Virus record (IMG/VR): IMGVR_UViG_3300042478_002150
Coordinates: 1 to 48,757 of that record
Length of the DNA: 48,757 nucleotides
Direction: 5' to 3' (one strand)
Source of the DNA: a virus
Translations under genes and position numbers: made by a program
Shown here: positions 1 through 48,757 of the stretch, one piece after another
Layout of the letters: each line of letters begins with the position of its first letter
Numbering within the stretch: the first letter of the stretch is position 1
Notes under the pieces: model-generated
The model's input: only the letters and a program-made list of their open reading frames with translations
Databases searched by the model: none
What the model was told of the DNA's origin: nothing

Positions 1-609
1 GTTCCGCCGTGGGCGGCGCTGGACCGGGCGATGGGCTGGGCGCAGGGCGAGGCGCAAGCCCACCGCGCCGCCCAGGGGCAGAACCCCGAGGGCAACCTGA
101 CTCCGATGGAGCGCGAGCTGTTCTGCGCGAAGGTGAAGGAGCAGAACCCGCCCCCGCCCGCCGCGGCTGCGCGAGACTTCCTCTGGTATCTGGCGACGCC
201 CTACACGGCGGCGCCGGACGGCAAGCCGGTGGCGTGGAGGTTTGCAGCCGACGCTCTGTGCGAGCTGCTGCGCCGTGAGGTGCGCGTGTTCTCCCCCATC
301 GCCCACACCCACATCGCCGGCGCGCTTCTGCGCCAGGACCACGAGTTCTGGATGGCGGCGGACCGCCCGTTCATGGCCCGTTGCGACGGGCTGCTGGTGC
401 TGCGGCAGCCCGGCTGGAAGGAGTCGCGCGGCGTCACCGAGGAAATCCAGACCTTCGCCAAGGCTGGCAAGCCGGTGCTGTTCTTCGATGACCCGAACCT
501 GGAATACGCCCGCATCCAGAAATCCCAGGCCGCCGATTGGGACACGATGGTGAACACGCTCCGGGCCGCCGAGCGATCGCCAGAGCTTTACGGCCGGGGG
601 GCTGCCTGA
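1..609 (+). CDS. Nucleotide pyrophosphohydrolase/DUF1937 fusion, C-terminal part (allele 1, 5' partial)
   Basis: This frame is open from base 1 and has no start codon; it is the 3' end of the gene that begins at 47743. The visible 202 residues hold a linker rich in Ala, Gln and Pro, then a DUF1937-type domain (about residues 60-165) starting with FLWYLATPYTA and containing VFSPIAHTH. DUF1937 resembles nucleoside 2-deoxyribosyltransferases and nucleotide hydrolases, so a role in the nucleotide pool is likely but unproven. The stop overlaps the next ATG (TGATG), so translation is coupled. Compared with the copy at the other end, codons around 217-267 are almost completely replaced while the last 127 bp are identical. 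Confidence 0.8.
   Translation, partial: VPPWAALDRAMGWAQGEAQAHRAAQGQNPEGNLTPMERELFCAKVKEQNPPPPAAAARDFLWYLATPYTAAPDGKPVAWRFAADALCELLRREVRVFSPIAHTHIAGALLRQDHEFWMAADRPFMARCDGLLVLRQPGWKESRGVTEEIQTFAKAGKPVLFFDDPNLEYARIQKSQAADWDTMVNTLRAAERSPELYGRGAA
466..592 (+). repeat. Terminal exact repeat, left copy
   Basis: These 127 bp are identical to 48631-48757. Bases 1-465 also align without gaps to 48166-48630 but differ at about 44 positions by hand count. 127 is a common final assembler k-mer, so this is most likely a circular graph overlap and not a biological terminal repeat. Confidence 0.9.
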
Positions 610-2639: not shown

Positions 2640-2862
2640 TGTCCGGTATTGTCCGTAAGGGGGTCCGGAATAGTATTCCGCCGCTGTCCGGAAACCAAGA
2701 ACCCCGACTCATCCCATTGATGAGCTGGGGTTTTTCTTGGTCGGAGTGAGAGGATTCGAACCTCCGGCCCCTGCGTCCCGAACACAGTGTCCGATTTTGT
2801 CCGTCACAATTGCGGACAGAGAGTTCAATTACTTGGCCGCGATCCTGTCCGCCGGCTGTCCG
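2640..2862. other. attP: Phage attachment site (attP) over a tRNA-Pro(CGG) 3' fragment
   Basis: On the minus strand, 2787 down to 2738 reads as a tRNA from the anticodon arm to CCA. It has anticodon stem CTGTG/CGCAG with loop TTCGGGA (anticodon CGG), variable loop GGGCC, a 17-nt T arm with loop TTCGAAT, acceptor strand CACTCCG, discriminator A, then CCA. There is no D arm or 5' acceptor strand, so it is not a working tRNA. The fragment ends 41 bp from the 3' end of the integrase gene. Around it TGTCCG or its complement occurs at 2640, 2650, 2685, 2788, 2798, 2813, 2846 and 2857, possible arm-type integrase sites. Use as attP is inferred from this arrangement. Confidence 0.85.
2694..2741. terminator. 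Bidirectional rho-independent terminator
   Basis: An inverted repeat pairs ACCAAGAACCCC..CTCATC with GATGAG..GGGG plus a T run and CTTGGT, with a 5-nt loop at 2714-2718. The T run follows the stem on the plus strand, and the mirrored A-rich arm gives termination on the minus strand. It would end rightward transcription from the methyltransferase. On the minus strand it directly follows the CCA of the tRNA-Pro remnant, so after integration it would serve as the tRNA gene's terminator. Confidence 0.85.
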
Positions 2863-3722
2863 TTGAGAGCCGTCGCGAGGTCATGTTCGGTGACGTGAAC
2901 ATAATTACGCAGCACGGTAGCGATGCTGTCGCCCATCATGGCGGCGATCACCGCCGGCGGCACGCCGCGCAGCGCGGCCTTGGTTCCCCAAGTATGCCGG
3001 AAGGTGTGGGCGGTGGCATCCTCCACGCCGGCCAGGCGGGCGGCGCGGGCCCGGGTCTTGCGGGTGGAGACACCGCCCGGCACCACGTAGGGGTCGTTGC
3101 CCCGCTCGGCGCGGGCGCGCTCCAGGATCGGCCGCAGGGCCGAGTCGATCGGCACCGGCACGCGGCGCTTCTTGGTGCGCTTGCGGCCAGGCTCCCGGTA
3201 GTCGATCCGGCCCGCCTCCAGGTCCACACGGTCCCAGGTCAGATCCTCGATAGCGGTGCGGCGCGCCGCCGTCCAGCGCGCCAGCGCCAGGAAGATGTAG
3301 CCGGGGGTCAGCTTCTCCAGGTGCTCCGGCTGCACCGCCGCCATCATGGCGTCCATCTGCTCGTCGGTCAGCACCAGCGACCGCGGCTCCGCCGCGGCGG
3401 GCATGGAAATGAAGGGCACCTGGTCGGGCTGCACACCGGTGCGGCGCGAGTTGCGGGCGGCGAACCGGATCACGGCGCGCAAGTGCTGGAGCTCGCGGCG
3501 GATGGTGGAGTCGCTCACGGCCCGTCCGTTTTTGCCCTGGCGCCGTCCGCTGGAATACCGGACAAGCTCCACATCATCAATCTCGTCCACGGCCATGGCG
3601 CCGAAGTGCCGGCGGAGCGGGGCGGCGGCGTGCGTCAGGCGCTCGCGGTCGGTGACGTGCTCGGCCGCGTGGTGGGTATCGTAGAAGTCGATCAGCCAGG
3701 ACACGGTGCGCGCGGCGCTCAT
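2829..3722 (-). CDS. int: Tyrosine-type site-specific integrase
   Basis: This is a 297-aa phage integrase that joins attP to the host tRNA-Pro gene. The N-terminal SAM-like core-binding domain covers about 1-105 and the catalytic domain about 112-285. Catalytic residues visible are Arg in TAARR (154/155), a basic beta-hairpin KRTKKRR (181-187), the H239-x-x-R242-H243 box, and the nucleophile Tyr274 in NYVHV. The ATG at 3722 overlaps the repressor stop (ATGA); an in-frame extension to 3797 would sit inside the repressor gene. Overlap with the repressor implies both are made from one leftward transcript, so integrase would also be expressed in the lysogen. Confidence 0.95.
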   Translation of the reverse strand: MSAARTVSWLIDFYDTHHAAEHVTDRERLTHAAAPLRRHFGAMAVDEIDDVELVRYSSGRRQGKNGRAVSDSTIRRELQHLRAVIRFAARNSRRTGVQPDQVPFISMPAAAEPRSLVLTDEQMDAMMAAVQPEHLEKLTPGYIFLALARWTAARRTAIEDLTWDRVDLEAGRIDYREPGRKRTKKRRVPVPIDSALRPILERARAERGNDPYVVPGGVSTRKTRARAARLAGVEDATAHTFRHTWGTKAALRGVPPAVIAAMMGDSIATVLRNYVHVTEHDLATALNGQPADRIAAK

Positions 3723-4135
3723 TCCTGGATCTCCTGGAGGATGGCGAAAATCTTGGCGGCGGCGCTGGCCGGGACCATGCGGTTGACGCGGAGCCACACC
3801 GCGCCGCGCTGCCCGGCGATCTCGGTCATGGCGAACGCAGGCACCTCGTCCTGCGCCACCATGCCCATGGAGGCGGGCACCAGGTCGTCCGGTTTCATGT
3901 GCAGCGCGTCGCAGATGCGGCGGAGGCTCTTGGGGGTGGGAAACGACACGCCGCGCACGTAGGTGGAAATGAGCTCCCGCGGCAGCCCGGAGGCCCGCGC
4001 GAGGTCGGATTGGTTCATGTCCCGGTCCTGGAGGGCCTTGGCCAGCCGGCGCGCAAGCTCTTGCCGGGCAAGGTCGCGCGCTCCACCCGGGGGTGGAGAC
4101 GCGGACGGTTCCGCCAGCATGCGGGGTTTGGGCAT
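3719..4135 (-). CDS. CI-like repressor, XRE helix-turn-helix family
   Basis: This 138-aa protein has a Pro/Ala-rich N-terminus and a helix-turn-helix at about 40-72 (MNQSDLARASGL, then a recognition helix and SFPTPKSLRRICDAL). The C-terminal part (80-138) is a short sheet/helix region and not the S24 LexA-like peptidase of lambda CI, so induction by RecA-driven cleavage is not expected. It is likely the lysogeny repressor. Its own promoter contains a 17-bp palindrome (4191-4207), suggesting autoregulation. It is co-transcribed and translationally coupled with the integrase, as in P2-type phages. Confidence 0.8.
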   Translation of the reverse strand: MPKPRMLAEPSASPPPGGARDLARQELARRLAKALQDRDMNQSDLARASGLPRELISTYVRGVSFPTPKSLRRICDALHMKPDDLVPASMGMVAQDEVPAFAMTEIAGQRGAVWLRVNRMVPASAAAKIFAILQEIQE

Positions 4136-8821: not shown

Positions 8822-9678
8822 TGGTCAAGCTGACCGATGAAAGCGCGGAGCGCCCCGAGCTGGCGCACATCAATGCCCTAGTGGATGCCGGGTGGAGCGC
8901 GCAGCGCGCGCAGGACACGCCACGCGGCTACCTGGGCGGGAGCCGGTTGGGCGAGGACTGCGAGCGCCGCCTGGGCTATGAGTGGCACCGCGCCCCGGAG
9001 GACGAGGGCAAGGGGTTCACCGGCCGGACGCTGAGGATTTTCGAGCGCGGGCACCACGCTGAGGACAGGATGGCGCGGTATCTGCGGGAGGCCGGGTTCG
9101 ACTTGCAAACAGGCGACCGGGGCGGCCAGCTTGGCTTCGGCGTGGCACGCGACCGCGAAACCGGACAGGCGCGTATCGCCGGGCACATCGACGGAAAAAT
9201 CCTGGGGTGGGAGCACAATCTTTGGATCAATCCGGCGTCCGGCGAATGGGCCGCGGCCCTTCCCTACCCTCTCCTGTGGGAGCACAAGGGCCTGAACGCG
9301 AAGAACTTCAAAGACCTCAGGCGACACGGCATCAAGAAGTCCAAGCCGATCTACTACACGCAGGTGAATATTTACATGGCCTACATGGACCTCAAGCACG
9401 CCATGTTCACGGCCGAGTGCCAAGACACCTGCGAGGTGTATGTGGAAATTGTGCCACTGGACATCGCGACGGCGCAAGCCGCCAGCGACAAGGGGCTGCG
9501 CGTGGTGATCTCGCGGCGCCCCGAGGATCTGCCGCGGTGCGCCGCCAATGCGGACGACTTTCGCTGCCGGTTCTGCCCGTTCGCTGGGACGTGCTGGGCG
9601 GAGCCCACCACATGCGCGCCCGAGGGCGCGGTGGTCGCGCCGGCGTGGTTGTCCGCATTGAAGCCGGACGGCACGTAG
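8821..9678 (+). CDS. Cas4/RecB-like PD-(D/E)XK exonuclease
   Basis: This 285-aa nuclease has the motifs of the RecB/Cas4 family: GHID with Asp124, the E-x-K box as E154-H-K156, and the Q181-x3-Y185 motif. Cys47 and the C-terminal cluster Cys240, Cys249, Cys252 and Cys258 could hold an iron-sulfur cluster as in Cas4 and AddB. No CRISPR array is present, so the likely role is end resection in phage recombination beside the Sak4 ATPase and the helicase. ATG 8821 is chosen over GTG 8818 because it overlaps the previous stop in TGATG. Confidence 0.85.
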   Translation: MVKLTDESAERPELAHINALVDAGWSAQRAQDTPRGYLGGSRLGEDCERRLGYEWHRAPEDEGKGFTGRTLRIFERGHHAEDRMARYLREAGFDLQTGDRGGQLGFGVARDRETGQARIAGHIDGKILGWEHNLWINPASGEWAAALPYPLLWEHKGLNAKNFKDLRRHGIKKSKPIYYTQVNIYMAYMDLKHAMFTAECQDTCEVYVEIVPLDIATAQAASDKGLRVVISRRPEDLPRCAANADDFRCRFCPFAGTCWAEPTTCAPEGAVVAPAWLSALKPDGT

Positions 9679-14671: not shown

Positions 14672-14722
14672 CCGGTTGGAGCGTGCTATTGTCCGGAATC
14701 GGACCGGACGGAAGGCACCCCT

Positions 14723-15374: not shown

Positions 15375-15482
15375 GTGGGCTGGGCTGACTTGGAATCCTA
15401 CCGAGGGAGAGGGCGCGCGGAGCGCGTCAGGTGTGTGAGGCGCGTGAGCCGGCGGGGCTGGATACCGGACAGGTGGATGTGA
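15375..15482 (+). CDS. Possible small basic protein, 35 aa
   Basis: A GTG at 15375, eight bases after the resolvase stop, has GGGGGG in front. The product is Arg-rich with three Trp. It could be a real short gene or chance coding in GC-rich DNA; an orphan leader of the opposite strand lies inside it. Confidence 0.25.
   Translation: MGWADLESYRGRGRAERVRCVRRVSRRGWIPDRWM
15387..15400 (-). repeat. Orphan start-context repeat
   Basis: On the minus strand TAGGATTCCAAGTC matches the sequence placed directly before the ATG of three genes at 16111, 16685 and 17252. Here no start codon follows. This suggests a gene was lost from the downstream end of the leftward operon. Confidence 0.6.
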
Positions 15483-15616: not shown

Positions 15617-15652
15617 AAGGGGCCGGGGCGCTGTGGTGGCGCCCCGGCCCTT
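15617..15652. terminator. Strong terminator between convergent operons
   Basis: AAGGGGCCGGGGCGC and GCGCCCCGGCCCTT form a stem of about 14 bp (one bulged G) with a 7-nt loop, followed by TTGGTGTTTT on the plus strand. It lies between the rightward resolvase gene and the leftward accessory operon. Confidence 0.75.
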
Positions 15653-15673: not shown

Positions 15674-15847
15674 CTAGGAGCGCAGGATCTCCGCGGCATC
15701 CCGGACCACATCATCCCCGCAGCAGTTCGCTTGCGCCGACTCGCGCGTCGGCCACTTGCGGGCGCGTTCGAGCGATTTGGTGTAGCTCTTGGCGGAGCCG
15801 GCCGGGGCGACGTAGGCGCGAAGCGTCGCGTTCCAGATCACATACAT
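15674..15847 (-). CDS. Small basic protein, 57 aa
   Basis: The ATG at 15847 lies three bases after the stop of the upstream gene and has GGAGGG about 9 nt upstream. The product has MYVIWNATLRAYVAPAG, a basic helix SYTKSLERARKWPTRES, then NCCGDDVVRDAAEIL. Many phages carry a short protein of this type in early operons, with no known role. Tight spacing and normal composition support it. Confidence 0.6.
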   Translation of the reverse strand: MYVIWNATLRAYVAPAGSAKSYTKSLERARKWPTRESAQANCCGDDVVRDAAEILRS

Positions 15848-15850
15848 CGC

Positions 15851-16111
15851 TCAACCCTCCCCGTCCGCATTGGTGGGGTAGGCGTTCATCCAGCGCGCCA
15901 CCTTCGCGTCACGCTTCGGGATCTGCGCCTCCAGGGCTGCCGCGTCCTGGCTGGCGGCGGTGAGGGCGGACGCGAGGGCGGAGAGTTCGGCGGGGTCCTC
16001 GCCGTATTCAGGTTCCATGGCATCCGCCATGCCCCGCACCTGCTCGGCCATGGTGGCGAGGCGGGCGGAGAGGGACGCGGGGGTGGTGGTCGGTTCGGTG
16101 GTCGCGTTCAT
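15851..16111 (-). CDS. Hypothetical helical protein, 86 aa
   Basis: A Thr-rich N-terminus is followed by a helical stretch rich in Ala, Glu and Leu (about 12-75), likely a coiled coil. The ATG at 16111 is set by the repeated context GAAGGATTCCAAGCC and a CA-rich leader. An acidic patch (EPEYGEDP) sits mid-protein. Function unknown. Confidence 0.6.
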   Translation of the reverse strand: MNATTEPTTTPASLSARLATMAEQVRGMADAMEPEYGEDPAELSALASALTAASQDAAALEAQIPKRDAKVARWMNAYPTNADGEG

Positions 16112-16126
16112 GGCTTGGAATCCTTC
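16112..16126 (-). repeat. Start-context repeat copy
   Basis: GAAGGATTCCAAGCC sits directly before ATG 16111. The AAGGA part gives the ribosome site at correct spacing. Near-identical copies are at 16686-16700 and 17253-17266, with an orphan at 15387-15400. Confidence 0.75.
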
Positions 16127-16163
16127 GGGGTGTGGTGGGTTGTCGGGTGGGATTGCGGACGAT

Positions 16164-16685
16164 CTACGCGCTCGCGTCCGGCCGCTCGGTGTTGGGTGTG
16201 GTGAGCCGCGCGACACGCAGGAGGTTCGCGACGCTGCCATAAAACACCTCGTAGTCCTCGGGGGTGGTGTCCTCGTCCGCGTGCCGATCCTCCAGCTCGT
16301 GCACCTCGTCCTTGACGTCGCGGAGAGCTTCGAGCTGGCGGCGCAAGGTCGGCCACGCCTCACCAGGAAGATCCACCTTCACGAAGTGGGCCATCTCGTC
16401 GCGGAAGTGGGCGAAGGGCGCGCCGTCCGTGGTGGGAGCGTAGGGCGTGATGGCGGCACCGGTCGCCGGGCAGACCATCGTGTAGGCGCACACGGACCCG
16501 GCGGGGTGGCTGCCGTTGGGGCCGCTGTAGGCCGGGTATTCGTAGCGGTTCACGTCCGCCACATACCAGAGCGAGCCGGCCGGGGTGACGCGCTCGCGCC
16601 CGGTGTGGTCCTCGTCCGTCTCGTCGTGGATGCCGGCAAACACGTCGCCCAGGTCGTGCGCTGCGTAAGGGTGCATGTCAGTCAT
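16164..16685 (-). CDS. Hypothetical acidic protein, 173 aa
   Basis: The N-terminal half has many aromatic and Gly residues (SLWYVADVNRYEYPAYSG) and two Cys. The C-terminal half is an acidic helix region (DVKDEVHELEDRHADED). It looks like a folded cytoplasmic protein of unknown family. The start at 16685 is set by GAAGGATTCCAAGTC; an in-frame ATG at 16775 lies in the leader. Confidence 0.6.
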   Translation of the reverse strand: MTDMHPYAAHDLGDVFAGIHDETDEDHTGRERVTPAGSLWYVADVNRYEYPAYSGPNGSHPAGSVCAYTMVCPATGAAITPYAPTTDGAPFAHFRDEMAHFVKVDLPGEAWPTLRRQLEALRDVKDEVHELEDRHADEDTTPEDYEVFYGSVANLLRVARLTTPNTERPDASA

Positions 16686-16700
16686 GACTTGGAATCCTTC
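16686..16700 (-). repeat. Start-context repeat copy
   Basis: GAAGGATTCCAAGTC sits directly before ATG 16685, preceded by a CACCACACTCACCAC leader. It differs from the copy at 16112 at one base. Confidence 0.75.
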
Positions 16701-16811
16701 GTGGTGAGTGTGGTGGTGTCCCAGGCGGGCGCCTCGCGCCCGGCCCTGGCCAGAGCCGGCGCCGTCCGGTTGCATTGCGGACAGCGCCGGCAGGGGTCAG
16801 GGTCGGGGCGC

Positions 16812-17252
16812 CTAGCAAGCCTGGATGACGAGGAAGCCGGCGTCCTCTAGTTGCCGGCGCCAGTCGATGCCGCCGTTGCCGTTGATCCCGCCGGCCGTGC
16901 CATCGGGCGCGACAAACCGGGCGCCGTGCATGGCGGCGCTGCGCTTGTCGTAGCCGCCCCCGTGCGCCTTGCCGGTGTGCCGGCCGCCCATGCGGCCCGT
17001 CTCGTCGGGGAGCCACGCCACGGCCATGCAGGAGCCGCCCGCGCCCCAGGTCAGGACCACGCAGCCCCAACGCTGCGGGTTGGTCGGGTCCACGATGGCC
17101 CACGCCTGCGTGTTGCGGGTCCGGCTCTCCATCTGGTGGACAGCGGCCAGGAACGCGGCGTCGAACCGTTCGCGCTGGCGCTCGCCGCGCTGCTCGTCGG
17201 TGAGGCGCCGCGGGCGCTTGGTGTCGGGGGTGGTGTCGGTGGTGGTGCTCAT
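16812..17252 (-). CDS. Hypothetical protein, 146 aa
   Basis: A basic N-terminus (KRPRRLTDEQRGERQRERF) is followed by a mixed alpha/beta region with WAIVDPTNPQRWGCVVLTW, the conserved-looking HGGGYDKRSAAMHG loop and a C-terminal IDWRRQLEDAGFLVIQA. GYDKxSAA loops occur in phage early proteins of unknown role. The start at 17252 follows TAGGATTCCAAGCC. Function unknown. Confidence 0.65.
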   Translation of the reverse strand: MSTTTDTTPDTKRPRRLTDEQRGERQRERFDAAFLAAVHQMESRTRNTQAWAIVDPTNPQRWGCVVLTWGAGGSCMAVAWLPDETGRMGGRHTGKAHGGGYDKRSAAMHGARFVAPDGTAGGINGNGGIDWRRQLEDAGFLVIQAC

Positions 17253-17266
17253 GGCTTGGAATCCTA
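17253..17266 (-). repeat. Start-context repeat copy
   Basis: TAGGATTCCAAGCC precedes ATG 17252. The upstream leader contains repeated CACCACACCACACC. Confidence 0.75.
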
Positions 17267-17369
17267 GTGGTGGGAGGGTTCGCGTTGTGGGGTGTGGTGT
17301 GGTGTGGTGGTTGCGTGGTCCGGCGTCATTCCGGACGCCGCAGGCGTCCGGATGCGCGGGGGTTCGGGG

Positions 17370-17861
17370 TCAGTGGATGATGCCGGCGGGCGGGCGCTTC
17401 GGGGGCGCGCGGTCCGCTTTCGGGTCGCGGGCGAAGCCCTCGCGAAGCGCCGCCTCCAGACGGTCCGGATCGGCCATGAAGCCGGGCGCGGTCGCGGCGT
17501 TGCGCTCGCCAAGCTGGCGGGCGGTCGTCACCTGGGTGGGGGTGAGGGTGGCGGATGCCACGTCCATCATGCCGGCAATCATGCCGCGCGAGGCGGCCAC
17601 GCCGAGAGCTATTCCGGCGGCCAGGATGCCGATAACGCAATCGGGACCGTGCCCGGCGTGCTGCTCGGCGAGGGCTTCGGCTTCGTGCTCGCGCTCGGCC
17701 AGCATGGCGGCCAGGGTCGCCAGATTGGCCACGGTCGAGGCGGCCAAGGTGGAGCGGACGGCAAGCCATAAATCCGCCGGAATGCCGGGGTGTGGCGGTG
17801 CCTCGTCGGTCAGGTTGGTGGGGATGTAGTCGCCACGGGGGGCGGTGGGATCGGTGGGCAT
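17370..17861 (-). CDS. Hypothetical protein with hydrophobic segment, 163 aa
   Basis: After a polar N-terminus comes a long helical region with a Glu-rich part (AMLAEREHEAEALAEQ). A weakly hydrophobic stretch (CVIGILAAGIALGVAAS, about 89-105) could touch a membrane. The C-terminal tail is basic (DPKADRAPPKRPP). ATG 17861 follows a leader with CACCACACAAGGAC. Longer in-frame starts to 18053 run through the leader. Function unknown. Confidence 0.6.
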   Translation of the reverse strand: MPTDPTAPRGDYIPTNLTDEAPPHPGIPADLWLAVRSTLAASTVANLATLAAMLAEREHEAEALAEQHAGHGPDCVIGILAAGIALGVAASRGMIAGMMDVASATLTPTQVTTARQLGERNAATAPGFMADPDRLEAALREGFARDPKADRAPPKRPPAGIIH

Positions 17862-17997
17862 GGTCGGGGTCCTTGTGTGGTGTCGGTCGGTGGTGTGGTT
17901 GGTCGTCCGGTATGGGGTGGCGCGGGATGCGCCATCCGCCGGCCAGGGGAGGCGCGGGCGGATGCCTGCGCGCCTCCAGGGGTCGGGGGATGGGGGG

Positions 17998-18843
17998 CTA
18001 GTCGGGGGCGTAAGTGGCGAGGTGCTTCCTGATCCACGCGAGGGGGTCCGCAATGCTGGCGTCGCTGATGTGCGGGGCGGGAATCAAGAGGGAGTCGCCA
18101 AGGTGCGGGAGGGCTTGCGCCACGATGCCGGAATACCCTTCGGGGGAGAGGCGCGCGCCAAACGGCCAGCCGCCGTCAAAACCATACTCACCCTTGGCGG
18201 TGGCGTAGGTGATGCGGCGGGCGAATCCGACATGGCCAAGGATGAAGGCGGCGCGGGCGAGGTCTAGGGGGGCCGTGTCGATCTTTACCCATTGGAAAAT
18301 CCCATTGGTCCAGCCCTGCGCGCCAGACCCCGCAACCGCCCAACACTCGACGGGGCGGCGGGCAGCCAGAAGGCGCACAAGCGCCACGATGGCGGCGCCA
18401 CGATTCATCATGTCGCGCGTCGAAATTGTGCCGGAGCAAACGACATCCACCACAATGCCAAGGGGGGCGGCCTCGTCCATCGTCCGCACGCGGCGGCGCA
18501 TGGCCATGGGGGCGCCGGCAAGGTGCGCTGGCACGCAAGGGATACCGCCGGCCACGTCCAAGCGGGTGACGGTGCGGGGGGTGGGCATGTCTAGCGCGGT
18601 TTCAATCTCGGTCAACATTGCATCGGATGCGGCGGCGCAGGCGTTGTCACCATGGGCGATTGCGGCCAAGGCTTGGGCGCGGGTCACGCTGCCGAACCAT
18701 TCGCGGCGCCCGGCGGTGGGTTCCTCATGGCGGTGGCTGGTGACGTATGCGTGATACTCGGACGCATCGGCACAAACGACGTGGTGCGCTTTGCGGCCAG
18801 GGGCGGCGGCTTCGGGAGCGTCAAGGGTGAAGATGCGGGCCAT
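17998..18843 (-). CDS. Partner protein of the AAA+ ATPase, 281 aa
   Basis: This protein is coupled to the AAA+ gene upstream: TAG of that gene and this ATG are five bases apart. Residues 130-185 read IVVDVVCSGTIS, MMNRGAAIVALVRLLAARRPVECWAV, a beta-alpha-beta order like the core of a von Willebrand A domain, but without a full DxSxS metal site. The rest is alpha/beta with several Trp and His. MoxR/CobS-type ATPases usually work with a VWA partner, so this is likely that partner. I recall similar phage proteins listed as DUF7192, but could not check. Exact role unknown. Confidence 0.65.
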   Translation of the reverse strand: MARIFTLDAPEAAAPGRKAHHVVCADASEYHAYVTSHRHEEPTAGRREWFGSVTRAQALAAIAHGDNACAAASDAMLTEIETALDMPTPRTVTRLDVAGGIPCVPAHLAGAPMAMRRRVRTMDEAAPLGIVVDVVCSGTISTRDMMNRGAAIVALVRLLAARRPVECWAVAGSGAQGWTNGIFQWVKIDTAPLDLARAAFILGHVGFARRITYATAKGEYGFDGGWPFGARLSPEGYSGIVAQALPHLGDSLLIPAPHISDASIADPLAWIRKHLATYAPD

Positions 18844-18847
18844 GGGT

Positions 18848-20176
18848 CTAGCCTTCGATCTGCTGGCGCTGGGCGGGCGCGAGGTTCGCGAGGTAGGTGA
18901 TACCGGCGGCGTCGTCCGGTGTCATTCCGGACGCAATGAGCGCGGCGCCGGCGTAGGTGGTGCGGGGGTCGATGATAACCTTAAGCCCGGCCTCCTGGGC
19001 GCGACGGCGGGCACGCTGCACGCGATCGCACCATGCGGGATTGCCAGACAAGGCGCGCTCGGTGTTCTCGTCGTAGGTCCAGCCGAGTCGGATCGGGAAG
19101 CGGGACATGAACGCCGCGTCGATCCGGGACCGGCCAACGAATTCCGCAGTTGCGCCCATTCCCCAAGTGTTGGCGGTGGCGATGCAAATGAAGTCGGGAT
19201 GCATCTTCACGGCGCCGTCCGGGAAGGTGCACGCGCCGTTTGCGAGGGCGCCGTTCAAGGCCAGCAAGGCCGCGTTGTCGGATGCGTCAACCTCGTCAAA
19301 GCAATAGATGCCGCCGAGCTCGTAAGCGGCGCGGAACGCGGTGCCGTGGTAGGTTCCGCCCGCGTCCTGGTAGCCGAGTAGGGCGTAGGGGTCGGCAAGG
19401 GCGCCGTTGTGGTGGAAGGCGAGGGCGAGGGCTTCGGCTACCTGCTTCGCGGCGTGGGTCTTGCCGCTACCGGTCGGGCCGGCGATCCAGACTCCCATAC
19501 CGCCCCGGCCCCGCACGGCCTGACAGGCGGCCAGGAGCTTCGGCAGCATGGGGTGGGCGATACCTTCGATGCGGCGGGGCTCGGCGCCGTCCGTCCGGAT
19601 TTCGATGGTCAGCGGCTTGTGCGCCTTGGCGAGTTCCTCGGCCACGATGGCGCGCACGGTGTCGGCGTCCACATGCGTGGCCTTGGGCTGCATGGCGGCC
19701 AGGGCGGCGGCCAGGGCGGTTGCGGCGGATGCCACGTCCGGGGCCATTGCGGACGGGGCGGGCGTGGGAGTGGGTTCGTGTTCGATGGTGGGGGCCGGGC
19801 GGCGGGTGCCGGGGCGGAGATCAAGGGCGTTCATGGTGGGGGGTTCCGTGGTGGTGGTGGTGGTGTCGGTCGGCACATAGTGGTGCGTGGCATAGAAGGC
19901 GGGGACGCTGCGGCCGTGGGGGCGCAGCAAGGCGGCAAGCTGGTGGTTGTCGGGGTCGATCCATGCGCAGGTAAGCGCTTCTAGGCCAAGGCTGCGGGCT
20001 GCATCGGACGGAACGCCGCACGCGGTCAGCCATGCGCGGACCGGGCCACGGTTGCCACTATGAATCGCGATGTGGGACGCGGGGTTGCCATTCGCGCGGA
20101 AGCAGTCGCGGGGGCCGTAGGCTTCAAGACAAGCGGCGTGGGCTTCCTCTACGGATAGGGCGGGGGTTCGGGCCAT
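18848..20176 (-). CDS. CobS/MoxR-like AAA+ ATPase with N-terminal extension
   Basis: This 442-aa protein has an AAA_5-type domain (about 205-410) with Walker A GPTGSGKT (233-240), Walker B CFDEVD (292-297), sensor 1 ATANT (333-337) and the arginine finger region MSRF (357-360). Residues 1-100 form a separate small domain with two Cys. They are joined by VPTDTTTTTTEPPT, which is the translation of a CA-rich leader, and a Met at 115 (19834) follows it. So a second, 328-aa product may start at 19834, or two genes were fused by loss of a stop. Such ATPases remodel protein complexes or insert metal ions (CobS) with a VWA partner; that partner follows. Confidence 0.8.
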   Translation of the reverse strand: MARTPALSVEEAHAACLEAYGPRDCFRANGNPASHIAIHSGNRGPVRAWLTACGVPSDAARSLGLEALTCAWIDPDNHQLAALLRPHGRSVPAFYATHHYVPTDTTTTTTEPPTMNALDLRPGTRRPAPTIEHEPTPTPAPSAMAPDVASAATALAAALAAMQPKATHVDADTVRAIVAEELAKAHKPLTIEIRTDGAEPRRIEGIAHPMLPKLLAACQAVRGRGGMGVWIAGPTGSGKTHAAKQVAEALALAFHHNGALADPYALLGYQDAGGTYHGTAFRAAYELGGIYCFDEVDASDNAALLALNGALANGACTFPDGAVKMHPDFICIATANTWGMGATAEFVGRSRIDAAFMSRFPIRLGWTYDENTERALSGNPAWCDRVQRARRRAQEAGLKVIIDPRTTYAGAALIASGMTPDDAAGITYLANLAPAQRQQIEG

Positions 20177-27899: not shown

Positions 27900-28934
27900 A
27901 TGCCTTTCACCGCCCAGCAGCTCACCAGCATGGCGAACGCTGCGCTCGACTACTTCATCAAGGGCCAGCCCCTTGCGCAGACCATCCAGGACAAGCCGCT
28001 TCTGTCCGCGATGCGCTCCGCGCAAAAGACGTTCTCCGGCGGCGCCGGCCTGATCCGCCGCAACATCAAGGCCGACTACAGCACGGCCATGACCGGCTTC
28101 GAGAACGACGATGTGCTGACCTTCGGCAACCCGGGCAACATCCGGCAGATCAACTTCCCCTGGAAGGAGCTGCACGCCGGTATCGAAACCACGCTGACCG
28201 AGCTCAAGAAGGACGGCATCAGCGTCGTGGACTCCATGACCGGCGCGCGCACGGTGGACCACTCCGAGGCCGAGATGCACCGGATCTCCGGCATCTGGCA
28301 GGACAAGCTCGATGACCTGCGCGAAGGCGTGGAGCGGTCGATGAATTCGATCTTCTGGCGCGACGGCACGCAGGACTCCAAGGCGCCCCCGGGCGTCCTG
28401 GCGTTCATCAGCGACACCCCGACGACCGGGATCATCGCCGGCATCGACCGGGCACAGTCCGCTTGGTGGCGCAACCGCGCGTCCCTGAACATCAACGCCG
28501 CCACCCCGGCCAACCAGACCCTCACCACGACCCTGCGTCGCGAGGTGCGCCAGCTCCGCCGGTATGGGGGCAAGCCGAACAAGTGCCTGTGTGGCAGCGC
28601 CTTCCTGGAGGCGCTGGAGGCCGAGGTGCACAACAAGGGCGTCTATACGCAGACCGGCTTCACCGGCCGGCGCGACATCTCGATGGGCTCCATCGTCCTG
28701 CAAGGCGTGGGCGAATTCGAGTATGACCCCACGCTGGACGACCTGGGCCGGTCCAAGCACGCCTACATCATGGACACGACCAAGCTGTATCCGATGGTCA
28801 TGGATGGGGAGGACATGAAGAAGCACGTCCCCGCCCGGCCGCACGATCAGCTCGTGATCTACCAGGGCGTGACCTGGACGGGCGCGATGGTCTGCACGCA
28901 GATGAACGCCCACGGCGTCTATTCGATCGCCTAG
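27900..28934 (+). CDS. Major capsid protein
   Basis: This 344-aa protein follows the scaffold and has features of HK97-fold capsids: an N-terminal arm, then FPWKELHAGIETTLTELKKDGISV, a long spine-like helix DKLDDLREGVERSMNSIFW, and a C-terminal DGEDMKKHVPARPHDQLVIYQGVTWTG. Codon use is very regular with C at third positions, as expected for the most highly made protein. A hairpin follows 8 bp after its stop. Confidence 0.85.
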   Translation: MPFTAQQLTSMANAALDYFIKGQPLAQTIQDKPLLSAMRSAQKTFSGGAGLIRRNIKADYSTAMTGFENDDVLTFGNPGNIRQINFPWKELHAGIETTLTELKKDGISVVDSMTGARTVDHSEAEMHRISGIWQDKLDDLREGVERSMNSIFWRDGTQDSKAPPGVLAFISDTPTTGIIAGIDRAQSAWWRNRASLNINAATPANQTLTTTLRREVRQLRRYGGKPNKCLCGSAFLEALEAEVHNKGVYTQTGFTGRRDISMGSIVLQGVGEFEYDPTLDDLGRSKHAYIMDTTKLYPMVMDGEDMKKHVPARPHDQLVIYQGVTWTGAMVCTQMNAHGVYSIA

Positions 28935-28942
28935 TCCGGAAT

Positions 28943-28973
28943 GAAAGCGGACGGTCCCTAACTGTCCGCTTTC
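28943..28973 (+). terminator. Hairpin after the capsid gene
   Basis: GAAAGCGGAC and GTCCGCTTTC form a 10-bp stem with an 11-nt loop. The T-rich end (CTTTCTC) makes a weak rho-independent terminator that would set the high level of the capsid mRNA relative to downstream genes. Confidence 0.65.
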
Positions 28974-32735: not shown

Positions 32736-32786
32736 TTTGTCCGGAATGACAGCGGACAATGAACATCCCTCCGGACGGAGAACCCC

Positions 32787-38119: not shown

Positions 38120-38583
38120 GGGTTGTCCTGCACCAGAACGATGTCGAGGGCCTGCGGCACGTCGCGCGCCACATGCGCGAGTGGGACAGGCGCGAGATTT
38201 TCGCCCGCCGGTGGGGCGACGACCCCGAGTCGATCGTGCGCGACGTGACGCAGGCGGGCTTCCCTTGGTGGGTGGCCTATGTGGATGGCGAGCCGGTGAG
38301 CGCCATCGGCGCGATGCACGGCACGCCCGGCGCGTGGTTCCCCTGGTGCTTCGGCACGGAGGGGTTCGCCATGAGCGCATTGGCGCTGACAAGGCTCGCA
38401 AGACGGGTTATCATGCCCGCTGTCCGGAATGCCGGCGGACTCCGCATGGAGGTGAAGTCCATCGACGGGCACACCGACGCGCAACGCTGGTTGGAGAGGT
38501 CGTTCGGCGCCAGGCGCGAGGGGACTCACCCCAAGGCCGGCAAGGGTGGCGAGACGTTCCACACCTACGGGCTGGAGCTGTGA
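38116..38583 (+). CDS. GNAT-like internal virion protein, T7 gp13 type
   Basis: This 155-aa protein resembles a GNAT acetyltransferase fold: WWVAYVDGEPVSAIGAM forms strands 3-4, and later TDAQRWLERSFGARREGTH the C-terminal helix and strand. The acetyl-CoA loop is poor, as in T7 gp13 relatives, which are virion proteins rather than active enzymes. The GTG start overlaps the previous stop. It begins the internal-protein block. Confidence 0.65.
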   Translation: MRVVLHQNDVEGLRHVARHMREWDRREIFARRWGDDPESIVRDVTQAGFPWWVAYVDGEPVSAIGAMHGTPGAWFPWCFGTEGFAMSALALTRLARRVIMPAVRNAGGLRMEVKSIDGHTDAQRWLERSFGARREGTHPKAGKGGETFHTYGLEL

Positions 38584-47742: not shown

Positions 47743-48757
47743 ATGCCGCAGGATGGAAGCCCCTACATGGGGTGGCTTGGCCGGGAAGCGCCTGGCATCT
47801 CGGCAGGCGCGCGCATGGGCGCGCTGTCGAACAACCCCAAGGATGCGATTGGCCGAACCAAGACGCCGATGCACCTGATCCCGCCCACCGCGCTGGTGGA
47901 AATGGCCCGGGTGATGGGCCTGGGGGCTGAGAAATACGGGCCCTACAACTGGCGCGACGCCAGCGTGGCCGCCACCGTCTATCTCGCCGCCGGGCAGCGG
48001 CACATCGTCGCGTTCCTGGATGGCGAGAACGCGGACCCGGAGTCCGGCGCCTCACACCTGGCGCACGCGGCGGCCTGCATGAGCATCCTGATCGACGCTT
48101 TCGCCACCGGCAACGTGGTGGATGACCGGCCGAAGCCGGGCCCCGCGGCAGCCATGATGGCGGGCGTTCCGCCGTGGGCGGCGCTGGACCGGGCGATGGG
48201 CTGGGCGCAGGGCGAGGCGCAAGCCCACCGCGCCGCCCAGGGGCAGAACCCCGAGGGCAACCTGACTCCGATGGAGCGCGCGCTGTTCTGCGCGAAGGTG
48301 AAGGAGCAGAACCCGCCCCCGCCCGCCGCGGCTGCGCGGGACTTCCTCTGGTATCTGGCGACGCCCTACACGGCGGCGCCGGATGGCACGATCGCCGGGC
48401 ATTTCCACGCCGTCCATGCCCTCCGCGAGCTGCTGCGCCGTGAGGCGCGCGTGTTCTCGCCCATCGCCCACACCCATACCGCCGGCACACATCTGCGCCA
48501 GGACCACGAGTTCTGGATGGCGGCGGACCGCCCTTTCATGGACAGGTGCGACGGACTGCTGGTGTTGCGGCAACCGGGATGGAAGGAGTCGCGCGGCGTC
48601 ACCGAGGAAATCCAGACCTTCGCGAAGGCCGGCAAGCCGGTGCTGTTCTTCGATGACCCGAACCTGGAATACGCCCGCATCCAGAAATCCCAGGCCGCCG
48701 ATTGGGACACGATGGTGAACACGCTCCGGGCCGCCGAGCGATCGCCAGAGCTTTACG
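47743..48757 (+). CDS. Nucleotide pyrophosphohydrolase (dGTP/dATP type)/DUF1937 fusion (allele 2, 3' partial)
   Basis: The frame runs off the window end; joined to 593-609 it makes 343 aa. Residues 25-118 fit the dATP/dGTP diphosphohydrolase N-terminal family (DUF5664, MazG-like helices): TPMHLIPPTALVEMARVMGLGAEKYGPYNWRD in part, then GQRHIVAFLDGE and ESGASHLAHAAACMS. Residues about 203-310 are the DUF1937 domain (FLWYLATPYTA). The fusion suggests removal or trimming of purine deoxynucleotides during infection, perhaps to shape the dNTP pool. No PurZ or special polymerase is present, so a 2-aminoadenine genome is not indicated. It has its own promoter. Confidence 0.75.
   Translation, partial: MPQDGSPYMGWLGREAPGISAGARMGALSNNPKDAIGRTKTPMHLIPPTALVEMARVMGLGAEKYGPYNWRDASVAATVYLAAGQRHIVAFLDGENADPESGASHLAHAAACMSILIDAFATGNVVDDRPKPGPAAAMMAGVPPWAALDRAMGWAQGEAQAHRAAQGQNPEGNLTPMERALFCAKVKEQNPPPPAAAARDFLWYLATPYTAAPDGTIAGHFHAVHALRELLRREARVFSPIAHTHTAGTHLRQDHEFWMAADRPFMDRCDGLLVLRQPGWKESRGVTEEIQTFAKAGKPVLFFDDPNLEYARIQKSQAADWDTMVNTLRAAERSPELY
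48631..48757 (+). repeat. Terminal exact repeat, right copy
   Basis: Partner of 466-592. Joining at this repeat restores one intact gene across the ends and gives a circle of about 48.2 kb that drops the variant segment 1-465. Confidence 0.9.

What the first reader, a model, noticed from the sequence alone, without database searches (positions are those of the whole stretch)
15674..20176. Leftward accessory operon with a CobS/MoxR-like AAA+ ATPase and a coupled partner
Seven genes run against all neighbours between replication and packaging modules. The first two are an AAA_5-type ATPase with intact Walker A, Walker B and sensor motifs and a 281-aa protein with a VWA-like beta-alpha-beta core, five bases apart. 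The other five are unknown small proteins sharing the same leader design. MoxR/VWA pairs act as chaperones or metal inserters in bacteria; their phage role is not established. Candidates are host takeover, virion maturation or anti-phage exclusion in the lysogen. This is the strongest candidate for an undescribed system here.
Basis: partly seen in the sequence, partly recalled or inferred. Interest (0 to 1): 0.72.

Follow-up and report, generated by a model that had tools for sequence, protein, structure and literature searches.

The report
Phage AAA+ motor with VWA-like partner
A virus of bacteria carries, in a swappable cargo slot, a two-gene protein-remodelling machine (a ring-forming ATP-burning motor plus an adaptor) that is found as the same inseparable pair in very different phages but whose target nobody has yet identified.

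Summary
Seven leftward genes lie at 15674-20176, bounded by rightward genes, with a terminator behind. Gene 1 is a MoxR-class AAA+ ATPase: all catalytic motifs are intact and the nearest solved structures are NorQ and CbbQ. Gene 2 belongs to Pfam DUF7192; its confident AlphaFold model matches, outside its own family, phage CobT/VWA-domain proteins. So the VWA guess is supported by fold, though not by sequence, and the metal site (MIDAS) is not conserved. The kind is already known: MoxR-vWA and "CobST" pairs are described in tailed viruses. This is a distinct, MIDAS-less variant filed under unknown function. The slot is accessory. A relative with the same virion genes carries a classical CobS/CobT pair there; another carries neither. 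That argues against a core virion-assembly role, and the pair is not a cobaltochelatase. Most likely it is a protein-remodelling pair acting on a host, competitor or defence target; the target is unknown. Five small genes are orphans; three share an exact 15-nt leader.

The parts
18848..20176 (-). Gene 1: MoxR/NorQ/CobS-class AAA+ ATPase (442 aa); helical N-terminal domain 1-96, disordered Thr-rich linker 97-147, AAA+ module about 170-441
   Evidence: Pfam AAA_5 E 3e-7; PHROG 249 E 9e-47; catalytic residues K239, E295, N336, R359, R390, R405 invariant and D294 33/34 in 34 relatives; AF2 model, best PDB matches NorQ and CbbQ E about 2e-10
17998..18843 (-). Gene 2: DUF7192 partner (281 aa), VWA-like b-a-b-b-a core from residue 128, MIDAS not conserved
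   Evidence: PF23822 E 3.7e-11, PHROG 1909 E 1.8e-20; AF2 pLDDT 88, pTM 0.84; Foldseek to phage VWFA/CobT proteins E 5e-5 to 2e-4; column counts
17370..17861 (-). Gene 3: 163-aa orphan
   Evidence: no Pfam/PHROG hit; no relative in fetched loci
16812..17252 (-). Gene 4: 146-aa protein, weak PHROG 7028 match
   Evidence: phrog_7028 E 2e-4; no tblastn hit in phages
16164..16685 (-). Gene 5: 173-aa orphan
   Evidence: no tblastn hit in phages
15851..16111 (-). Gene 6: 86-aa orphan
   Evidence: no significant family
15674..15847 (-). Gene 7: 57-aa orphan, starts 3 nt after gene 6
17250..17264 (-). Shared translation leader GGATTCCAAGCCATG at gene 4 start
   Evidence: exact pattern
16683..16697 (-). 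Shared translation leader GGATTCCAAGTCATG at gene 5 start
16109..16123 (-). Shared translation leader GGATTCCAAGCCATG at gene 6 start
15384..15398 (-). Decayed leader copy without start codon, possible relic of a lost eighth gene
   Evidence: 2 mismatches
15620..15650 (-). Terminator-like hairpin behind the operon (12 G-C pairs)
17318..17336 (-). Palindrome GTCCGGAATGACGCCGGAC between genes 3 and 4 (dispersed element)
16764..16782 (-). Palindrome GTCCGCAATGCAACCGGAC between genes 4 and 5 (dispersed element)

Best explanation
Genes 1 and 2 encode a phage version of a MoxR AAA+/VWA remodelling pair. Gene 1 most likely forms an ATP-driven hexameric ring like NorQ and CbbQ. The fast-evolving DUF7192 protein is its adaptor: a reduced VWA-like domain that docks on the ring and recruits a target through surfaces other than a metal site. 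ATP hydrolysis is then transmitted to pull apart or remodel the target complex. The pair sits in an accessory slot between the replication and packaging modules and is transcribed against them with small cargo genes. The target is therefore more likely a host, competitor or defence complex than the phage's own virion. Shown: intact AAA+ motor motifs, VWA-like predicted fold, constant gene linkage, co-variation, accessory slot. Inferred: hexamer, docking mode, remodelling activity, nature of the target.
For: AAA+ class: the family profile hits CobS, CbbQ, NorQ and midasin in the PDB, and the AF2 model's best 20 matches are NorQ and CbbQ, including NorQ-NorD VWA complexes, E about 1e-10 to 1e-8. 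Motor intact: K239, E295, N336, R359, R390 and R405 invariant, D294 in 33 of 34. Partner fold: AF2 pLDDT 88. After 12 matches that are DUF7192-named or unnamed, the next BFVD matches are phage VWFA/CobT proteins, E 5e-5 to 2e-4, probability 0.97-1.0; 6 of the 10 best weak PDB matches are also VWA-containing proteins or complexes. Linkage: a DUF7192 gene lies directly downstream, same strand, in all 35 loci L008-L042 and two remoter ones, median gap 23 nt, and in 12 named phages. Co-variation: Mantel r 0.42, p 0.0002; mean partner identity 20% against 41% for the ATPase domain. Slot: L013 has the pair counter-oriented between RusA and the w21161 homologue plus TerL, as here. Mae-Yong1326-1 has classical CobS/CobT in the equivalent place. 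RHph_N65, with related capsid, portal and tail genes, has neither. In 7 of 36 loci a SprT-like HExxH peptidase gene lies immediately upstream, echoing the peptidase-VWA fusion of phage CobT.
Against: No experiment on any family member was found. Sequence profile comparison of DUF7192 with the VWA domain of a phage CobT gives no support (probability 2%), and PDB Foldseek E-values are 0.1 or worse, so the VWA call rests on predicted folds. MIDAS residues, needed for target activation in NorD (PMC9976466), are not conserved (D133 column is D in 7 of 35). The complex itself could not be modelled. The target is wholly inferred.
Confidence: 0.55

Rival explanations
1. Virion assembly or maturation chaperone, as proposed for ATV p618/p892 and for the jumbo-phage MoxR-vWA pair: the pair folds or processes a structural protein.
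For: ATV p618 binds the VWA protein p892 and virion proteins (PMC4124505). Jumbo-phage MoxR-vWA(peptidase) was proposed for assembly (PMC7824862). A SprT-like peptidase neighbour occurs in 7 of 36 DUF7192 loci.
Against: RHph_N65 has homologues of the window's terminase, portal, scaffold, capsid and tail genes and lacks both proteins. The operon runs against the structural module. In phages K, LP-114, Lumos and Tunturi_4 the pair lies outside annotated structural clusters. phiM5 gp63/gp64 carry no 'detected in particle' note although another ORF does.
Confidence: 0.15
2. Cobaltochelatase accessory (CobST) that boosts host cobalamin, as proposed for cobST clusters in tailed viruses.
For: ATPase family is distantly CobS-like; PHROG label 'porphyrin biosynthesis'; proposed in PMC8651126.
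Against: CobS equivalog TIGR01650 scores 19.4 bits against a 558-bit cut-off. The partner has no conserved MIDAS and no detectable sequence relation to CobT. No CobN in the window. The same pair is in Staphylococcus phages, whose hosts do not make cobalamin (own knowledge, not tested here).
Confidence: 0.05
3. Superinfection exclusion or anti-phage defence expressed by the lysogen: the pair and small genes are a moron that protects the prophage-bearing host.
For: The phage has an integrase and repressor. The counter-oriented accessory slot between modules is typical of morons. MoxR-vWA modules occur in bacterial conflict systems (PMC7159879).
Against: The same pair is kept by phages regarded as strictly lytic, such as K and A511 (lifestyle from own knowledge), so exclusion cannot be the general role. 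No toxin or effector domain recognised among the five small genes.
Confidence: 0.15
4. The VWA resemblance is only a generic Rossmann-like a/b core; DUF7192 is an unrelated adaptor and the ATPase is a NorQ-like motor with a new kind of partner.
For: Weak PDB matches include Rab and ARF GTPases among VWA hits; no sequence support; MIDAS not conserved.
Against: Matches ranked 13-25 in BFVD, outside the DUF7192 block, are nearly all named VWFA/CobT proteins at E below 0.005, a class known to partner CobS-like ATPases; order b-a-b-b-a fits VWA.
Confidence: 0.2

Closest known systems
DUF7192 (PF23822, PHROG 1909) plus PHROG 249 ATPase pairs in phages phiM5, Lumos, K/S25-3, P106B, A511, Tunturi_4
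   Same: same two families, same order and strand, adjacent or a few small genes apart
   Different: window copy has an extra folded N-terminal domain on the ATPase and lies in a seven-gene counter-oriented cargo operon of a temperate phage
NorQ/NorD and CbbQ/CbbO (MoxR AAA+ / VWA)
   Same: AAA+ module best structural match; two-gene motor plus VWA-like partner
   Different: partner here is 281 aa, lacks a conserved MIDAS and the large N-terminal region; no metalloenzyme target nearby
Phage CobS/CobT (cobST) pairs, e.g. Mae-Yong1326-1 ORF3/ORF4, haloarchaeal tailed viruses
   Same: equivalent genomic slot in a related phage, same gene order, VWA-like fold of the partner
   Different: Mae-Yong CobT has an HExxH peptidase motif and canonical DMSDSM MIDAS; DUF7192 has neither; the ATPase family profile hits the Mae-Yong CobS only at 8e-14
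ATV p618/p892 and jumbo-phage group 2.2 MoxR-vWA pair
   Same: virus-encoded MoxR with VWA cochaperone (PMC4124505, PMC7824862)
   Different: proposed for virion assembly; no sequence relation tested here

Membership tests
MoxR/CobS-class AAA+ ATPase | intact Walker A, Walker B, sensor 1, arginine finger and sensor 2 arginine | tested here: met
   K239, E295, N336, R359, R390, R405 invariant and D294 33/34 in 34 sequences; assignment of individual arginines is inference
MoxR/CobS-class AAA+ ATPase | closest structures within the NorQ/CbbQ/midasin clade | tested here: met
MoxR/CobS-class AAA+ ATPase | hexameric ring and ATP hydrolysis | not testable with these tools
   needs biochemistry or a complex prediction
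VWA domain | Rossmann-like b1-a1-b2-b3-a2 core and similarity to VWA structures | tested here: met
   model secondary structure order; BFVD matches to VWFA/CobT proteins E 5e-5 to 2e-4; PDB support only weak, E at least 0.11
VWA domain | sequence-profile similarity to VWA | tested here: not met
   hhalign probability 2% against one phage CobT VWA; no VWA Pfam hit in 35 members
VWA domain | MIDAS (DxSxS...T...D), not universal in VWA | tested here: not met
   D133 column D 7/35, N 11, E 7; +2 position S 5/35
DUF7192 / PHROG 1909 | score above curated Pfam cut-off | tested here: met
   43.3 bits against 27
CobS/CobT cobaltochelatase | CobS equivalog score | tested here: not met
   TIGR01650 19.4 bits against 558.55
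CobS/CobT cobaltochelatase | CobN subunit encoded nearby | tested here: not met
   no PF02514 in the window; host genome not available
Virion assembly MoxR-vWA | required by the virion module | tested here: not met
   RHph_N65 shares the virion module and lacks the pair

The most novel reading that the evidence does not exclude
DUF7192/PHROG 249 pairs, together with an optional SprT-like peptidase, form a widespread phage counter-defence or host-takeover machine in which a MoxR ring dismantles host complexes through a VWA-like adaptor that has lost its metal site and diversifies rapidly to follow its targets.
Probability: 0.3. Interest if true: 0.78.

Novelty: new variant of a known kind. Interest (0 to 1): 0.52.

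Why it matters
AAA+/VWA pairs are known to remodel other proteins, but their role in phages is an open question, usually papered over with the label 'porphyrin biosynthesis'. This case gives a widespread family (phages of Staphylococcus, Listeria, Mycobacterium, Gordonia, rhizobia, Acinetobacter, Alteromonas and Tunturiibacter) a fold for its unknown subunit. It also gives a reason to drop both the cobalamin label and the virion-assembly default, and a natural comparison (one slot, three cargo states) that makes the question testable in laboratory phages.

Tried and rejected
Direct protein search of IMG/VR with the 281-aa partner found nothing, and A1 was too divergent for pattern search; the ATPase alignment worked. 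Weaker ATPase hits L045-L088 mostly lack DUF7192; the few whose downstream genes were read lie beside sliding-clamp-like proteins. Comparison by HMM profile with CobT failed. Kayvirus transcriptome papers do not name the timing of this gene in the main text. tblastn of genes 4 and 5 found no relatives. The pattern scan with the 15-nt leader hit many contigs, one match each: at 14 fixed bases it is not specific. Neighbour survey: no fixed third partner; most neighbours unknown, with SprT-like peptidase, DUF3846 and ArdA recurring.
Full report
WHAT IS THERE. The seven leftward genes are real. A codon-usage gene caller trained on the window chose all seven, and they lie between a rightward primase/RusA block and a rightward gene plus terminase block. 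A strong terminator-like hairpin follows the last gene. No sigma-70-like promoter was found in this 69% G+C DNA, which means little. The phage has an integrase and an HTH repressor (2829-4120, also leftward), so it is probably temperate. Genes 1 and 2 are 4 nt apart.

THE ATPASE. Gene 1 matches AAA_5 (E 3e-7) and PHROG 249 (E 9e-47). A profile of 34 relatives hits midasin, CobS, CbbQ and NorQ among solved structures. The AlphaFold model (pLDDT 84) has NorQ and CbbQ as its 20 best matches, several of them NorQ-NorD VWA complexes. K239, E295, N336, R359, R390 and R405 are invariant and D294 is kept in 33 of 34. It is not CobS itself: the equivalog model scores 19.4 bits against a cut-off of 558. 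The first 96 residues form a separate helical domain, joined by a disordered Thr-rich linker.

THE PARTNER. Gene 2 belongs to DUF7192 (PF23822) and PHROG 1909, both of unknown function. With 35 relatives the AlphaFold model reaches pLDDT 88 and pTM 0.84, with strand-helix-strand-strand-helix from residue 128. Against viral structure models, the first 12 matches are DUF7192-named or unnamed. The next block consists almost entirely of VWFA or CobT proteins of haloarchaeal, Gordonia and uncultured tailed viruses, at E 5e-5 to 2e-4. PDB matches are weak (E 0.1 or worse), but 6 of the 10 best are VWA-containing proteins or complexes. Sequence profiles show no link to VWA. The MIDAS aspartate column is D in only 7 of 35 and the following Ser position is S in 5 of 35. 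I therefore accept 'VWA-like fold', not 'VWA with a working metal site'. The most conserved part is a Gly/Pro motif upstream of the core (G99, G110, P112, M115) and R209; I infer that these may be docking surfaces.

LINKAGE. In 35 of 35 IMG/VR loci of the ATPase family (L008-L042) a DUF7192 gene lies directly downstream on the same strand, and also in two remoter loci (L044, L053). The median gap is 23 nt, and 32 of 37 gaps are 100 nt or less. L043 ends inside the ATPase gene. It also holds in 12 named phages: phiM5, Lumos, S25-3, K, RHph_X2_24, P106B, Tunturi_4, A511, LP-114, AM24, Octobien14 and R22Y (R22Y's partner is weak, E 8e-6). More distant CobS-like hits lack it. The pair co-varies (Mantel r 0.42, p 0.0002). 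The partner diverges much faster than the motor, 20% against 41% mean identity, as expected of a target-facing subunit.

SLOT. Contig L013 carries terminase (55% identical), the homologue of window gene 21161, the counter-oriented DUF7192 pair, and RusA, in the same arrangement as the window. Microcystis phage Mae-Yong1326-1 shares integrase, repressor, terminase, portal, capsid and tail genes. Read in the window's orientation, it has a counter-oriented classical CobS plus CobT operon in the equivalent place. Its CobT keeps the MIDAS motif DMSDSM and an HETLH peptidase motif (PMC9503304). Rhizobium phage RHph_N65 shares the virion genes but has neither protein; four small leftward genes lie between its primase and the same rightward block. 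So the slot holds alternative cargo, and the virion module does not need the pair. Caveat: the three named genomes are about 25-47% identical in shared proteins, so slot equivalence is by gene order.

THIRD COMPONENT. In 7 of 36 loci (two nearly identical) a protein with HExxH, in several a weak SprT-like match, and a C-terminal zinc-ribbon Cys motif in most, is encoded immediately upstream of the ATPase. This is a separate-gene parallel to the peptidase-VWA fusion of phage CobT and of the jumbo-phage MoxR-vWA pair (PMC7824862). The window lacks it.

SMALL GENES. Genes 3-7 have no convincing relatives. The 15-nt leader GGATTCCAAGNCATG is exact before genes 4, 5 and 6; a decayed copy lies at 15384. 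This suggests modular gain of cargo genes with a common ribosome-binding leader. It does not show a shared function with the pair.

MECHANISM. From NorQ/NorD work (PMC9976466): the VWA domain is proposed to plug the AAA+ ring; MIDAS mutations spare ring binding but abolish target activation. A partner without MIDAS could thus still dock while recognising its target by other surfaces. The best reading is an ATP-driven remodelling pair acting on a non-virion target. Whether that target is a host enzyme, a host defence complex or a competitor cannot be told from sequence.

NOVELTY. AAA+/VWA pairs in tailed viruses are published as cobST (PMC8651126) and MoxR-vWA (PMC7824862). No paper in the searched library mentions DUF7192. 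I file this as a new variant of a known kind.

Noticed in passing
window, e.g. 9651-9669, 14691-14709, 16764-16782, 17318-17336, 18914-18932, 19736-19754, 28934-28952, 32739-32757, 38422-38440: A dispersed palindrome GTCCGSAATGNNNSCGGAC occurs across the genome: 31 matches with up to 3 mismatches against 2.4 expected; the strict form GTCCGS-N7-SCGGAC occurs 10 times against 0.2 expected. Several copies lie just behind stop codons; could be a terminator, an mRNA hairpin or an operator.
   Followed up: partly
window 1-592 and 48166-48757: The first and last 592 bases are 93% identical, carrying two copies of one gene end (31-609 and 47815-48756): a near-terminal repeat or strain variants at a circular junction.
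   Followed up: partly
L008, L015, L020, L021, L028, L032, L033, upstream of the ATPase: SprT-like HExxH zinc-ribbon protein (PHROG 6361) encoded immediately upstream of the AAA+/DUF7192 pair.
   Followed up: yes
L009:7298-9021: Two tandem DUF7192 genes behind one ATPase in the closest contig; L038 also has a second DUF7192 about 3 kb downstream.
   Followed up: no
L002:1349-1546 (phiM5 gp65): A small ORF in another frame inside the phiM5 ATPase gene is annotated 'detected in phage particle proteome', while the ATPase and its partner are not.
   Followed up: no
neighbours of the pair in L008-L042: One neighbour protein matches TROVE and one matches VWA_2 in Pfam (possibly the same Ro-like protein), and two match ArdA antirestriction.
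   Followed up: no
window 15384-15398: Copy of the small-gene leader without a start codon behind the operon, possibly a relic of a lost cargo gene.
   Followed up: no
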